From positions 868,001-932,000 of the forward strand of contig NZ_CP024963.1 in assembly GCF_002803985.1 (NCBI RefSeq): DNA of 64,000 bases, read 5' to 3'. This document shows, one piece after another, positions 52,009 to 60,581 of this stretch (position 1 is the stretch's first letter; each line of letters begins with the position of its first letter). Source of the stretch: Williamsoniiplasma luminosum. GTDB taxonomy: Bacteria > Bacillota_I > Bacilli_A > Mycoplasmatales > Mycoplasmataceae. The position numbers and the translations under genes were made by a program. The notes under the pieces are model-generated. The model did not search any database, had not been told where the DNA came from, and saw only the letters and a program-made list of their open reading frames with translations.

Positions 52009-53400
52009 ATGAAAAAATTATTAACATTATTAGGAAGTGTTGGAATGGTTGCTGCAACAGCTGCAACAGTTGTTGCATGTAACCCTGGCAAAAATGATGC
52101 TAAAGTATCTGATTCAACAATAAAAGTTGGTAAACATGGTGAAATCAACCTTACCAGAGATGAAATTAAAGAAGTTGAAGGATACAATGATGTAAAAGCC
52201 TATGAAGAAGGTTTTGTTCCAGCACCAGCTACAAAAGCGGATGCAGAAAAACCAAAACCAGTTTTAGATAAAGTAAAACTTGAAAACGGAGTAATTAGTT
52301 TTACAGGTTTAAAAGAAGGTAAAGCTACAATCGTATTACAAGGGACAAAAAAAGCACCAGTAACACCAGGAACTAAAACTGATGCGGCAGCTCCAAAACT
52401 TGAATTGTTGAAGACAAAATTCACAGTTATTGTTGAACCAAGTAGACAACCAGTAAAATCTATTAAAGAAGTGATCAAAACTCTTGCTTTAGGTGAAATC
52501 GCTGATGTTAAACCAGAAACTATTTTAGCAACAATTAATAAAGTAAATGCTGGTGCAAATCTTCTAGCTACAGATATTAAAATTGAAGTAGGAACAGATA
52601 ACAAATCAGCAAAAATTATTGGTCAAGGTATATTTAACGGAGATGTTACAGTAACTTTTACAGTTAAAACACCAACTGAAGATAAAAGAACAGATATTGG
52701 AACTCTTGTCAAAACATTAGGGAAATTAGAAGTAGATACTACTAAAGATGCAGTTATTGATGCATTTATTGCTAAAAACCCAAATGCAAAATTAGTTAAA
52801 GATGAATTACAAATTAAAGATGAATTAGCTGCAGATGCAACTACAGCTAAAATTGAAGTTAAATCAACTTCAACAACTCACAAAGGTTTTGTAGATGTAA
52901 ATTTTGAAAAAAAACCAGTTGAAGGTTCTAAAACAGATATTGGAACTCTTGTCAAAGTATTAGGGAAATTAGAAGTAGATACTACTAAAGATGCAGTTAT
53001 TGAAGCATTTATTGCTAAAAACCCAAATGCAAAATTAGTTAAAGCTGAATTACAAATTAAAGATGAATTAGCTGCAGATGCAACTACAGCTAAAATTGAA
53101 GTTAAATCTTCAACAACTCACACTGGGGTTGCTGATGTAACTTTTGAAAAAAAACCAGTTGAAGGTTCTAAAACAGATATTGGAACTCTTGTCAAAACAT
53201 TAGGGAAATTAGAAGTAGATACTACTAAAGATGCAGTTATTGATGCATTTATTGCTAAAAACCCAAATGCAAAATTAGTTAAAGATGAATTACAAATTAA
53301 AGATGAATTAGCTGCAGATGCAACTACAGCTAAAATTGAAGTTAAATCTTCAACAACTCACACTGGGTTTGCTGATGTAACTTTTGAAAAAAAAGCATAA
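52009..53400 (+). CDS. Surface lipoprotein with three tandem spiralin-like repeats
   Basis: The protein has 463 residues from the ATG at 52009. The signal MKKLLTLLGSVGMVAATAAT ends in the lipobox VVACN (Cys about 24). Residues about 35-140 resemble a bacterial Ig-like module (ISFTGLKEGKATIVLQGTKK, KLTKFTVIVE-like end). A spacer domain follows (about 150-225). Then three near-identical units of 80-81 residues begin TDIGTLVKTLGKLEVDTTKD and include IAKNPNAKLVKDELQIKDEL. The repeat pattern recalls spiralin of Spiroplasma. GGAG stands 14 bases upstream, rather far; an upstream in-frame ATG (51961 region) lacks a signal peptide and is less likely. Confidence 0.88.
   Translation: MKKLLTLLGSVGMVAATAATVVACNPGKNDAKVSDSTIKVGKHGEINLTRDEIKEVEGYNDVKAYEEGFVPAPATKADAEKPKPVLDKVKLENGVISFTGLKEGKATIVLQGTKKAPVTPGTKTDAAAPKLELLKTKFTVIVEPSRQPVKSIKEVIKTLALGEIADVKPETILATINKVNAGANLLATDIKIEVGTDNKSAKIIGQGIFNGDVTVTFTVKTPTEDKRTDIGTLVKTLGKLEVDTTKDAVIDAFIAKNPNAKLVKDELQIKDELAADATTAKIEVKSTSTTHKGFVDVNFEKKPVEGSKTDIGTLVKVLGKLEVDTTKDAVIEAFIAKNPNAKLVKAELQIKDELAADATTAKIEVKSSTTHTGVADVTFEKKPVEGSKTDIGTLVKTLGKLEVDTTKDAVIDAFIAKNPNAKLVKDELQIKDELAADATTAKIEVKSSTTHTGFADVTFEKKA
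52690..53400 (+). repeat. Three tandem 240-243 bp repeats in the lipoprotein gene
   Basis: Units start at 52690, 52933 and 53173. They are nearly identical at the DNA level (for example Asp/Glu and Asp/Ala differences at two codons, and an extra TCA-ACT pair in the first unit). The near identity implies recent expansion and makes unit gain or loss by recombination likely. Confidence 0.95.
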
Positions 53401-57079: not shown

Positions 57080-59290
57080 TTACAATTCGATATCAATATC
57101 GATATCACCATAATTGAAAATTGAAATTATGTTTTCAAAATTTAATTCTTCAAAATTTATTAATGAATTCTCTGCAATCTCTTTTAAATGCACCATAATT
57201 CCATACTCAACAGAAGGAATCCCATGATTAAGTAGATCCATTCTTTCAACAACAAAAGAAAAAGACTCTTTACTCTTTAATGAAATTGGGTTATTTTCAC
57301 TAAAATTCTTATCAAAAACAACTGTATTCGGATTATATTTTCCAAAATATTCCTTTAAAGCCTTTTCGTCAGCATCAACGCTATCTTTTTTTGATATTGG
57401 ACTTAATATATTACTTCGTGAGGACCCATTCTTTTGAGCTAACCTAAAACTTATATCTAAAGGAGAATATTCATCTCCGATTTCTATTTCATTAGGAATG
57501 TTGTAACAAACAGAATACGAAGCTGAAAATTCTGTTTTATTTGAACTATTAATAGGAAGATTTACATCGATTTCATATTTGCCTTTTGTATCAATAAAAC
57601 CTTCTATAAAAATAAAAATATCATTTTCACCTTTTAATATTTCAAGATCTGGAATACCATGTGAATTTGATTTCGATAAATAATTGATCACCGCTCTCGC
57701 ACTTTGGGGAGAAATTTTAAAATTTTCAATTAAATATGCAACTTTTCTAGTTACCAATGGCGTTGAAAATGAAGTTCCATTTTCAATCTTTAAGTTCTCA
57801 GATAAACCAGGTAATGAATGAACAATTGGTCCACCCCAATATGGATTACCCCTATTGTTTCCGAATTCATAACAATTCGGTTTTTGATACATTCCAAATA
57901 TTTTTCCAGATCCAGACCTTTCTCATTCTAGAACTTTTCCAGTTGTTCTTGATTTATATAAACTCCCCACAGATATAGATGTTAAAGAATCTGCTGGAGC
58001 ACTTAAATTTCTATTTTCTGAATTACCAGCAGATGTTACAATTTGAACTCCAAATTCAAATTGTAATTTATCTATCAATTTTCCAAAAGGAGTTATTATT
58101 AGTTCGTTATAACTTTTCTCAGAACCTAAAGAAATGTTTCAAATTTTAATTTCATGATAATTTTCTGAAATAATTTTATGTATTTTACGCATTAACATGG
58201 ATGTTAAAATTCTTCCCTTTGGTAAAACATTAAAAGATCTAACTCTAAATATCCCTAATCCATCTTTTTCTTCGTTTATAAAATCATTTAATGAAATTAT
58301 TGACGCAACTTGTGTTCCGTGATCCAAATCTTCGTTTTGATGGATTTCCAACATATCATATTGGCTTTCAATAAATTTTTGTTCTCATCATTCATCAATA
58401 TATTTAACTCGAGAATCTATAAGACCGATCACGGTTTTATTAATATCTTCATTTTTTATAATGGGCAATTCCACTTTGCTGCTTTGAATGAATTCTTGAA
58501 CATCTAAATCAATTTCAATATCATTCATAGTTTGTGAAAAAATAAATGGATATTTTGTAACAATTTGATTGACTTTTTCAATATCGATATTTCAAAACTC
58601 TGAAGCAATTAAAGATTCTTCACTTATATCGATTCCATTATCTAAAAGTAAATCAATAATTTTATTGAAATTATTGATTTTAAGATCTAGGAATGAAAAA
58701 ATTGGTGTTTTTTCAAATGGTTCTATTAAATTTATTTTTAATTCAAGTATATTCACAAAATCGTCTAACAACTTTTTATGCATAGTTTTTAATGAACTGT
58801 ATTTAAGAGTTATTAGTTCTTTTATTTTTTGGTTTTTTTCTTCAGCTTTTTGATTAGAATTGGTTATTTCAGTAACTTCCTTTTGAAAAATGGGATTTTT
58901 CAATATGAAATCTTCAACCTCGCACATATTGTCGATTGTTTTATCCAAATCAGAAATAGATAAAGAGTAAATTACATCTATGCGTTCTAACTTATTATTA
59001 CGATTGAAAATATATTTAGACCCTATTTGATTCGGTCCAGAAAACTCATGATTTACTAAAATCGCTTGAATCCTAAATGTTTTAGGGACAACCCTTTTAT
59101 ACGAAACCGTCACAGGAAATTCTGCAAACTCTTGGAAATCTAAAAAATACTTTTTAATATTTTTTAATGATTCTATTGAATCATTTATGGTTTTTTTCAT
59201 ATCATAGTTTCATTTTTCAAATGAAAATTTTCTTCCCGTAAACTTATTAAGTTTGGTTTTAGGTTGACTATATATAATAATTTTGGACAT
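57080..59290 (-). CDS. ietS: Subtilisin-like serine protease, IetS-type
   Basis: The protein has 736 residues. Residues 1-290 are a family-specific N-terminal region without signal peptide. The S8 catalytic domain follows: VIGLIDSRVKYID (Asp) near 310, DLDHGTQVASIIS (His) near 345, VTSAGNSENRN (oxyanion Asn), ENGTSFSTPLVTRKVA (Ser) near 505. The C-terminal 200 residues are a beta-rich accessory domain. No signal peptide and no propeptide, so it works in the cytoplasm. Its ATG overlaps the stop of the AAA ATPase by one base. The pair matches the IetAS anti-phage and plasmid-incompatibility systems. Several UGA-Trp codons. Confidence 0.85.
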
Positions 59291-60300
59291 TATTTAACTT
59301 TAGCCTTTCTTTGAAGTGTTGATTTAGAAACCCCCATTGCATTTTCTAAATCCCGGTAAGTAATATCAAATCCAATAAGATCAGTGGTGTCCAATTGCAA
59401 AATTTCAATTAAAGATTTTACTAAACTTTGATTATGAATTAAACTCTTAGTTACAACCTCATCAACAATTGCATAACTTATTTTATCCAAACTATTTTTT
59501 AATATTTTATACAATACTTTTTCATCGATTTTTAATTCAAATTCAGCAACTTTATGTAAAAACATGCTCATCATTTTATCAATATCAATATCGTTTTTTT
59601 TGATTCTTACATTAAATCTTCTAACTGTAGATTCGTCAATCAGGTCGTCTCTATTTGAAATTGCAAATAAAATGGAACCGTTTGGCAAATCATCCAATGA
59701 CTTATTAAAATTTCCTATCATTCTGTGATATTCATTGTTCATATCTAAATCTCTAGACCCTATTATAGAATCAAATTCATCGATTAAAATTATTGAATTA
59801 TCATAGACACTTCTAATTTCCTCAAAGACTAAATCAATATTTTTTTGTGTTTCTCCTAATTTATAAGATATTAATTTTGATGCATTTATTGAATAAAGTT
59901 GTCTACCAGATGCTTTGCAAATACTTTTTACAAATGTTGTTTTACCCGTTCCTGGTCTTCCTGTTATTAAGATTTTCAATCCTTTCATCTTATAAATAAT
60001 TTTTTCATTGCTAATTAAATTTAAAATTTTTTCTTCTTCATGATCTAGTTCCATCATATCTTCTATATGATTCTCTAACTTTAAAATTTTTATTGGCTGC
60101 ATGTTTTTAAATTGAGAAGAAGTCTTTGAACTAGTATTTCTATTCCCCATCATATCAAGAAGGATTTTTGACTCATTATTTAAATTGCTTTCAACAAACA
60201 ACTGGTGTATTTTTTTTAAAATCTGCAACGATTCTGTATTTTCTACTTGATTTGAAATAAATTCAGCAATTTTTAATAATTCTTTATCTGCAATATTCAT
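59290..60300 (-). CDS. ietA: AAA ATPase, IetA-type
   Basis: The protein has 336 residues. The first 100 residues are helical. The ATPase core shows Walker A ITGRPGTGKTTFVKS near 113, Walker B SIILIDEFDSIIGSRD near 173, sensor LFAISNRDDLIDES and the arginine pair TVRRFNVRI. The last 20 residues (TYRDLENAMGVSKSTLQRK) look like a helix-turn-helix tail. It is translationally coupled to the protease, with which it forms the IetAS defence pair. GGAGG precedes the start at 60300. It could also bind the iterons upstream; this is inferred. Confidence 0.85.
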   Translation of the reverse strand: MNIADKELLKIAEFISNQVENTESLQILKKIHQLFVESNLNNESKILLDMMGNRNTSSKTSSQFKNMQPIKILKLENHIEDMMELDHEEEKILNLISNEKIIYKMKGLKILITGRPGTGKTTFVKSICKASGRQLYSINASKLISYKLGETQKNIDLVFEEIRSVYDNSIILIDEFDSIIGSRDLDMNNEYHRMIGNFNKSLDDLPNGSILFAISNRDDLIDESTVRRFNVRIKKNDIDIDKMMSMFLHKVAEFELKIDEKVLYKILKNSLDKISYAIVDEVVTKSLIHNQSLVKSLIEILQLDTTDLIGFDITYRDLENAMGVSKSTLQRKAKVK

Positions 60301-60329
60301 TCAAATAACCTCCATAATTCTTTATCCTT

Positions 60330-60335
60330 ATTATA
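60330..60335 (-). promoter_or_regulatory. -10 element of the ietAS promoter
   Basis: TATAAT on the minus strand, 30 bases upstream of ietA. I see no good -35; the first iteron is centred about 46 bases upstream of the expected start of transcription. Confidence 0.6.
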
Positions 60336-60363: not shown

Positions 60364-60436
60364 TTTGGGACAAAATTAATATTTTTGGGACAAAGATATT
60401 ATTTTTTGGGACAAAGATAATATTTTTTGGGACAAA
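60364..60436. repeat. Four iterons upstream of ietA
   Basis: TTTGGGACAAA occurs at 60364, 60384, 60405 and 60426, with spacings of 20, 21 and 21 bases, about two helical turns. Each is a near-palindrome (TTTG-N3-CAAA). All lie on one face of the helix just upstream of the ietA promoter, as operator or activator sites would. Confidence 0.9.
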
Positions 60437-60495: not shown

Positions 60496-60581
60496 AAAAA
60501 ACGCAGTTGGATCAACGTATTGACCCAACCGCTACAAGAGATACATCTTGCTACACTTTAATCATTTACTACTTAATGATC
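60496..60581 (-). ncRNA. Candidate small RNA between ptsI and ietA
   Basis: On the minus strand a TATAAT (60588-60593) precedes about 85 bases that end in a strong terminator: GCGGTTGGGTCAA and TTGATCCAACTGC pair around TACG, followed by TTTTTT (60496-60532). Upstream hairpins (CAAGA-TGTA-TCTCTTG and ATCATTAA.TAAATGAT) are possible. No frame with a ribosome site fits. It could be a free RNA or an attenuated leader of ietAS. Confidence 0.55.

What the first reader, a model, noticed from the sequence alone, without database searches (positions are those of the whole stretch)
60364..60436. Four helically phased iterons at the ietAS promoter
TTTGGGACAAA is repeated four times with 20-21 base spacing, the nearest copy centred about 46 bases before the expected transcript start, while a -35 element is missing. 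This is how activator sites are placed. The ATPase ends in a helix-turn-helix-like tail (AMGVSKSTLQRK), so it could bind its own promoter. Self-controlled iterons would be new for IetAS as far as I know.
Basis: partly seen in the sequence, partly recalled or inferred. Interest (0 to 1): 0.7.

Follow-up and report, generated by a model that had tools for sequence, protein, structure and literature searches.

The report
Antitoxin ATPase and its promoter boxes
A bacterial toxin-antitoxin (and phage-defence) gene pair carries evenly spaced DNA boxes at its promoter, and comparison of many bacteria indicates that the antitoxin ATPase itself reads those boxes with a small DNA-binding tail, which would make the pair self-regulating.

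Summary
In detail: four exact TTTGGGACAAA copies, 20, 21 and 21 bp apart, between a terminator-like hairpin behind ptsI and the ietA -10. The genome's three other exact copies lie inside open frames. IetA relatives from many phyla end in a predicted C-terminal helix-turn-helix (HTH). 73 of 96 loci with the common HTH type have paired TGTCCC boxes exactly 20 or 21 bp apart at their own promoter, against 6 of 8418 control windows. Relatives with changed HTHs have changed boxes (TTACTCA, TGTACA, TGTCTCA). Four relatives without the recognition-helix arginine (R331 here) have T or A, not C, at box position 6, and the tree needs four separate changes. Six loci that lost the HTH lack the boxes, but four of them also show no IetS. 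Across the family the downstream box mostly sits between -35 and -10, so negative autoregulation is likelier than the proposed activation; in this window the array lies further upstream and the sign is open. IetAS-type pairs are published toxin-antitoxin modules, and self-operators fit type II antitoxins. My searches of the held papers found no HTH or operators for IetA. DNA binding itself is untested.

The parts
60426..60436 (-). box 1 (distal), TTTGTCCCAAA toward ietA
   Evidence: exact match
60405..60415 (-). box 2, TTTGTCCCAAA, 21 bp from box 1
60384..60394 (-). box 3, TTTGTCCCAAA, 21 bp from box 2
60364..60374 (-). box 4 (promoter-proximal), TTTGTCCCAAA, 20 bp from box 3; its TGTCCC starts 37 bp before the -10
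60330..60335 (-). -10 hexamer TATAAT, no recognisable -35
   Evidence: consensus match only, start site not mapped
60309..60313 (-). Shine-Dalgarno GGAGG before the ietA ATG at 60300
   Evidence: sequence
59290..60300 (-). ietA: AAA ATPase, 336 aa (an upstream in-frame ATG at 60315 also exists); Walker A GRPGTGKT, Walker B ILIDEFD read by eye
   Evidence: PADLOC IetA E 1e-26; Pfam AAA
59293..59388 (-). IetA C-terminal HTH (residues 305-336); recognition helix 326-335 with S327 and R331, both invariant in the 53 sequences of A2
   Evidence: AlphaFold; alignment A2; Pfam HTH matches of the tails, weak
57080..59290 (-). ietS: S8 subtilase, 736 aa with TGA=Trp, overlapping the ietA stop by one base
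   Evidence: PADLOC IetS E 6e-35; Pfam Peptidase_S8
60503..60532 (-). intrinsic-terminator-like hairpin after ptsI (ptsI named by reading), separating the array from the upstream gene

Best explanation
The four boxes are operators of the ietAS operon, read by the C-terminal helix-turn-helix of IetA itself. IetA, the AAA ATPase antitoxin of the subtilase toxin IetS, binds one box per HTH. Boxes two helical turns apart lie on one face of the DNA, so an IetA oligomer can hold two or more at once. In most of the family this covers the -35/-10 region and should repress the operon, so IetA level sets its own supply and toxin and antitoxin stay in step, as with type II antitoxins. In this window the array sits upstream of a promoter without a -35, and it probably acts as a repressing (or else activating) array by the same contact. 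Shown here: boxes, HTH prediction, dedicated location, covariation. Inferred: binding, oligomeric contact, sign of regulation.
For: (1) IetA with such a tail is widespread, with an IetS-like frame downstream in 69 of 70 genome-contig loci and 36 of 40 Mollicute loci. (2) Of 96 loci with the SKS-type HTH and at least 90 nt upstream, 73 have two TGTCCC boxes exactly 20 or 21 bp apart (at most one mismatch in all), against 6 of 8418 control windows from the same loci; by clusters at 90% protein identity, 62 of 81. (3) Different HTH, different box: NxSYSTxRR with TTACTCA, DRRT with TGTACA, GMSRSTLQRM with TGTCTCA; the 20-22-bp repeat has p<=0.01 in 9 of 10 loci of the window's clade (clade). (4) Residue 7 of the recognition segment (R331 here): 82 of 84 loci with R have C at box position 6 in at least one box, 0 of 4 with L, K, L or F do (p=6e-6; within Mollicutes 23 of 24 versus 0 of 4, p=2e-4). 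The tree needs four separate changes; starred branches force at least two. (5) Lost or truncated HTH: 0 of 5 have the pair and 0 of 5 a significant repeat; a sixth, L198, also has none although it is 83% identical to L076, which has both. (6) In 317 genomes of the order the exact pair occurs in 27; 18 of these hold an IetA, and there every match is at ietA. (7) Later loci: 8 of 9 with intact HTH have the pair (at most 88% identical to earlier ones).
Against: No binding or expression data. 23 of 96 loci miss the strict pair: four are the non-R loci with altered boxes, others show one box, variants such as CGTCCC, or an inverted unit, and in L052 and L108 I saw none. L151 keeps R but has TGTCCT twice; L049 keeps R with TGTCCA. 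Of six HTH-lost loci, four (L084, L147, L158, L198) also show no IetS frame, and L148b is the downstream copy of a tandem pair, so HTH loss is partly locus decay. The R-C6 rule was found in the same data, so its p-values are descriptive. Class-2 IetA without this HTH also have phased repeats in 3 of 10 loci, so there another DNA reader must exist. The own tail's best Pfam HTH match (E 0.003) is below Pfam's cut-off, and Foldseek with the tail gave nothing significant. In this window the boxes are 37 bp from the -10, not 13-16.
Confidence: 0.77

Rival explanations
1. IetA binds the boxes but activates the operon: positive autoregulation compensating for the missing -35.
For: No -35 at spacers 15-19 and nearest box centred near -46; all boxes phased at two turns; L134 has a similar gap of about 35 bp (read output). 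For the related sgiAT operon the authors suggest that it needs positive activation to be expressed (PMC5006074, passage); whether SgiA has the tail was not tested.
Against: In 38 of 47 genome contigs pairs and 16 of 22 Mollicute pairs the downstream box starts 13-16 bp before the best -10 hexamer, and TTGAC lies between the boxes in 28 of 47 (0 of 22 in Mollicutes), a place an activator would not easily tolerate. In relatives of the same clade (L139, L136) the last box sits at the -35 position, and in L138 and L017 it overlaps a -10-like hexamer (by eye). Many Mollicute promoters lack a -35 anyway (recalled).
Confidence: 0.2
2. The boxes are read by another, unlinked host regulator, and IetA's tail has a different job.
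For: Class-2 ietA loci without this HTH still have phased repeats in 3 of 10 cases.
Against: Box sequence changes with the IetA recognition helix, in four separate lineages for one residue; in the 18 IetA-bearing genomes with the exact pair it occurs only at ietA; the arrangement follows the gene across phyla.
Confidence: 0.06
3. The boxes are a DNA docking or stability site rather than a transcription control, for instance holding the IetA-IetS complex inactive on DNA, or acting like a partition or incompatibility site.
For: The pair on pTiC58 is titled as determining plasmid stability and incompatibility (Yamamoto 2009, title seen only in reference lists; the paper is not held); about six boxes in L017 exceed what simple repression needs.
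Against: The boxes sit at the operon promoter and overlap it in most pairs measured; the Agrobacterium pAt2 IetA examined here has, by eye, neither this tail nor a box pair.
Confidence: 0.1
4. Chance or slippage-derived tandem repeats in AT-rich DNA without function.
For: AT-rich genome; 20-21 bp units could arise by slippage, and in some relatives (L017, L133, L156) the whole unit is nearly identical.
Against: Here the box is exact in all four units while the spacers differ; conserved across phyla; 6 of 8418 control windows.
Confidence: 0.01

Closest known systems
IetAS / SgiAT / mycoplasma TA132-133 (AAA ATPase antitoxin with S8 subtilase toxin)
   Same: Same gene order, families and one-operon layout; PADLOC IetA and IetS models match. 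Toxin-antitoxin activity was shown for mycoplasma pairs (PMC8562856: abstract, passages and sections 7 and 15 read; PMC6755753: passages read) and for sgiAT (PMC5006074: passages read; PMC10954446: passages only).
   Different: What I read of these reports no HTH, operator or autoregulation by IetA. The Agrobacterium pAt2 and Klebsiella plasmid IetA examined here end, by eye, without this HTH and lack the boxes. One PADLOC model, PDLC02196, reaches over the tail in several proteins, so tailed members are already inside the catalogue.
Type II antitoxins that repress their own operon
   Same: Antitoxin gene first, DNA-binding domain in the antitoxin, operators at the operon promoter (general knowledge).
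   Different: Here the antitoxin is an AAA ATPase and the boxes are 20-21-bp direct repeats, in arrays of two to about six.
DnaA (AAA+ ATPase with C-terminal HTH that binds boxes in its own promoter)
   Same: Architecture: AAA core, C-terminal HTH, about 9-mer boxes in its own promoter (recalled).
   Different: No sequence relation tested; role differs; works like it at most in architecture.
Iterons of plasmid replication genes
   Same: Direct repeats of about 20 bp upstream of the gene whose product reads them (recalled).
   Different: No replication gene or origin identified here; IetA is not a Rep protein.

Membership tests
IetAS | AAA ATPase matching IetA models | tested here: met
   PADLOC IetA E 1e-26; NCBIfam 82.9 bits, far below its equivalog cut-off of 510
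IetAS | adjacent S8 subtilase matching IetS models | tested here: met
   PADLOC IetS E 6e-35, Pfam S8 E 4e-19; NCBIfam 82.7 bits, below its cut-off of 900
IetAS | toxin-antitoxin or anti-phage activity | not testable with these tools
   published for relatives only
Self-regulating type II antitoxin | DNA-binding domain in the antitoxin | tested here: met
   by prediction only: AlphaFold HTH, weak Pfam HTH matches; fold search not significant
Self-regulating type II antitoxin | cognate operators at the operon promoter | tested here: met
   boxes plus covariation; cognate in the sense of covariation, not binding
Self-regulating type II antitoxin | direct binding and repression | not testable with these tools
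   needs gel shift and reporter
Iteron-controlled plasmid replicon | replication initiator encoded next to the repeats | tested here: not met
   neighbours are ptsI, ietA and ietS on a 1.03 Mb contig; ptsI named by reading

The most novel reading that the evidence does not exclude
The box array is not only an operator but the sensor: a ring of IetA, parked on phased boxes through several HTHs, keeps IetS inactive, and removal or titration of IetA from its DNA during phage or plasmid invasion both derepresses the operon and frees the protease. A AAA ring held by two to six boxes two turns apart would be a new way to wire a toxin to DNA.
Probability: 0.12. Interest if true: 0.88.

Novelty: new variant of a known kind. 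Interest (0 to 1): 0.62.

Why it matters
I found no report of how IetAS-type pairs are controlled in the papers I could search. The boxes, the HTH and one residue-base pairing give a directly testable rule, seen in loci from mycoplasmas to records titled as Bacillota, Actinomycetes and Saccharibacteria. It gives a signature for finding the tailed form and a natural series of matched helix-operator pairs for a small HTH.

Tried and rejected
Search for other box pairs in the genome: none. Pfam on whole proteins shows no HTH among the 25 families listed; the tails alone give weak hits to many HTH families, so I name no HTH family. A profile of the tails against PDB sequences gave nothing better than E 0.02. 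Foldseek on the isolated 67-residue tail: nothing significant. Foldseek on the whole model: only AAA ATPases in the 50 rows listed. Phylum-level sampling added no new loci. The PADLOC profile over the family was useless because it also matches FtsH-length proteins and all 14 control genomes. Searching papers for the box letters gave 714 papers, of which the 20 listed are unrelated. The first search for IetAS or IetA gave 410 papers, mostly on endometrial ultrasound among the 20 listed; the phage-defence papers in that list were not opened. In one search my pattern misread three helices (L060, L104, L130); one search uses the corrected assignment. Gene starts in relatives were chosen by my own scoring and may be wrong in single loci (L042, L050, L204). 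Class-2 IetA relatives were set aside: they lack this HTH and I found no DNA-binding part in them.

Full report
Observation. The window holds four exact copies of TTTGGGACAAA at 60364, 60384, 60405 and 60426. Read toward ietA they are TTTGTCCCAAA. The genome (1,031,560 bases, one contig) has three other exact copies, all inside open frames, and no other TGTCCC pair at 12-17 bp. The array lies between a terminator-like hairpin on the ptsI strand (60532-60503) and a -10 at 60335-60330 without a -35. ietA (59290-60300) overlaps ietS by one base. PADLOC, Pfam and NCBIfam searches place them as IetA and IetS relatives, though below NCBIfam's strict cut-offs.

Relatives in the order. IetA was sought in 320 genomes with the single protein and in 317 with an alignment of 16. 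In one search, 39 loci in 36 genomes scored E<=1e-80 (counted by me); the weaker matches include fragments, class-2 relatives and FtsH-length proteins. Reading upstream showed phased direct repeats at most ietA promoters, with a box sequence that differs between relatives: TGTCCC in most, TGTCTCA in L136, TTACTCA in L131, L133 and L134, TGTACA in L138, L017 and L038, an unclear TTACA in L152. The IetA tail differs in parallel.

Relatives elsewhere. I dropped five with low model scores (L078, L085, L101, L114, L116) and four that repeat order loci or are broken (L039, L058, L068, L089), and moved L038 to the Mollicute set, leaving 70. Nearly all end in a tail like GFTVREIEILTGVSKSQVSRELK; 61 of the 69 with at least 100 nt upstream have at least one TGTCC within 160 nt of the chosen start. 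Their titles name Bacillota such as Streptococcus and Lachnospiraceae, Actinomycetes, Saccharibacteria and other Patescibacteria, Spirochaetes, Akkermansia and proteobacteria; many are metagenome bins. An IetS-like frame follows in 69 of 70 of these, 36 of 40 Mollicute loci and 9 of 10 class-2 loci.

Counts and controls. A TGTCC pair 19-22 bp apart occurs in 69 of 109 loci and in 3 of 7868 control windows. With at most one mismatch over two TGTCCC and spacing of exactly 20 or 21, the count is 52 of 68 genome-contig loci and 21 of 28 Mollicute loci with SKS-type HTH (the 28 include four non-R loci, none with the strict pair), 0 of 5 with lost HTH, 0 of 10 class 2, 0 of 8 with divergent HTH, and 6 of 8418 control windows. 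One locus (L102) with too little upstream DNA was left out. Clustered at 90% identity the 96 loci make 81 clusters, 62 with a pair; at 70%, 54 and 40. A motif-free test against shuffles finds the repeat at p<=0.01 in 9 of 10 loci of the window's clade (L152 p=0.056), 0 of 5 HTH-lost, and 3 of 10 class 2. In the order, the exact pair occurs in 27 of 317 genomes (the reversed control pattern in 4); 18 of the 27 hold an IetA, and there every match is at ietA. Those 18 are half of the 36 IetA genomes. The other nine have no IetA at E<=1e-80; of these I looked only at G172.

Residue-base coupling. Counting from S325, the seventh residue of the recognition segment is R331 in this IetA and invariant in the 53 sequences of A2. 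Among SKS-type loci with a TGTCC box, 82 of 84 with R have at least one C at position 6 and 0 of 4 without R do (23 of 24 versus 0 of 4 within Mollicutes). By box, 144 of 155 have C with R and 0 of 7 without. On a tree of 58 proteins without their tails, the four non-R loci need four separate changes, with at least two forced by starred branches; HTH loss likewise needs four (its bootstrap had not settled and 24 forks are open). Exceptions: L151 and L049 keep R without C6. The rule was found in these data, so its p-values are descriptive.

Later loci. Of 19 further loci, five are 100% identical in IetA to loci already used (L186, L188, L189, L191, L207), L209 repeats L203, L205 and L185 lack upstream DNA, and L206 is another type. 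Of the nine fresh ones with intact HTH, eight have the pair (L204 does not; its start may be misplaced). All nine have the R; none tests a non-R helix. L198 has lost the HTH and has neither box nor IetS frame in the stretch held.

Geometry. In 47 of 47 genome contigs pairs and 22 of 22 Mollicute pairs the spacing is 20 or 21 (searched range 19-22). The downstream box starts 13-16 bp before the best -10 hexamer in 38 of 47 and 16 of 22. TTGAC lies between the boxes in 28 of 47 and 0 of 22. This is where a repressor blocks RNA polymerase. In the window's clade the last box is 23 bp (L139, L136), 37 bp (this window) or more from the -10, or overlaps a -10-like hexamer (L138, L017); except for the 37 these are my readings.

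Structure. AlphaFold on 53 sequences (mean pLDDT 82) gives an AAA core and C-terminal helices 305-310, 315-322 and 326-335. The tail alone folds with lower confidence (mean pLDDT 75). Pfam matches of the 41 tails are weak and spread over HTH families, the lowest E-value listed for a common one being HTH_38 at 5.5e-6; the own tail's best is an antitoxin Xre-like HTH at 0.003, below the cut-off. A fold search with the tail is inconclusive.

What is known. The AAA ATPase/subtilase pair is a working toxin-antitoxin module in mycoplasmas (PMC8562856, abstract, passages and two sections; PMC6755753, passages) and in SGI1 (PMC5006074, passages, whose authors suggest that sgiAT needs positive activation). 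The primary Agrobacterium paper is not held. Searches for IetAS with HTH, IetA/IetS/subtilase, AAA-ATPase with subtilisin-like, toxin-antitoxin and autoregulation, sgiAT with promoter (of its nine papers two opened, by passages), S8/AAA/antitoxin/mycoplasma and IetAS with promoter, ATPase and protease showed me no report of HTH or operators for IetA. Subscription papers are mostly outside this library.

Judgement. IetA reading its own boxes is very likely; negative autoregulation is the likelier sign for the family; for this window the sign is open. HTH loss with box loss is weaker evidence than the residue coupling, because four of the six loci also lack IetS.

Noticed in passing
L156 (G004:C1), L020, L021: Class-2 IetA relatives without this HTH also carry 20-21-bp direct repeats upstream (L156 about seven copies of a TACCACCATTTTTATACTTTT-like unit; L020 AGTGTATA; L021 TTAAGTGTT); what reads them is unknown.
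   Followed up: partly
L092, L098, L112, L105: Relatives ending in SRGLNNE seem to carry the box pair upstream of the -35, in L092, L098 and L112 inverted as a unit (TGTTCC-like plus TGTCCC-like); read by eye.
   Followed up: no
G172:C2 (L179, L180): Three identical TGTCCC pairs in repeated copies on a 27 kb contig with repeated frames that look transposase-like by eye, in a genome where one search lists no IetA.
   Followed up: partly
L148 (G033:C1:667535-669700): Two ietA copies in tandem; the first keeps HTH and a box, the second has lost the HTH and has no boxes.
   Followed up: partly
L184 (Paenibacillus phage Yyerffej): A phage-borne IetA-like ATPase with a different HTH-like tail (GISPSTVNHHLKK) followed by a peptidase gene; no obvious box pair upstream.
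   Followed up: no
window 52009-53400: Putative lipoprotein (by eye) with three near-identical repeats of about 75 residues (TDIGTLVKxLGKLEVDTTKDAVI...).
   Followed up: no
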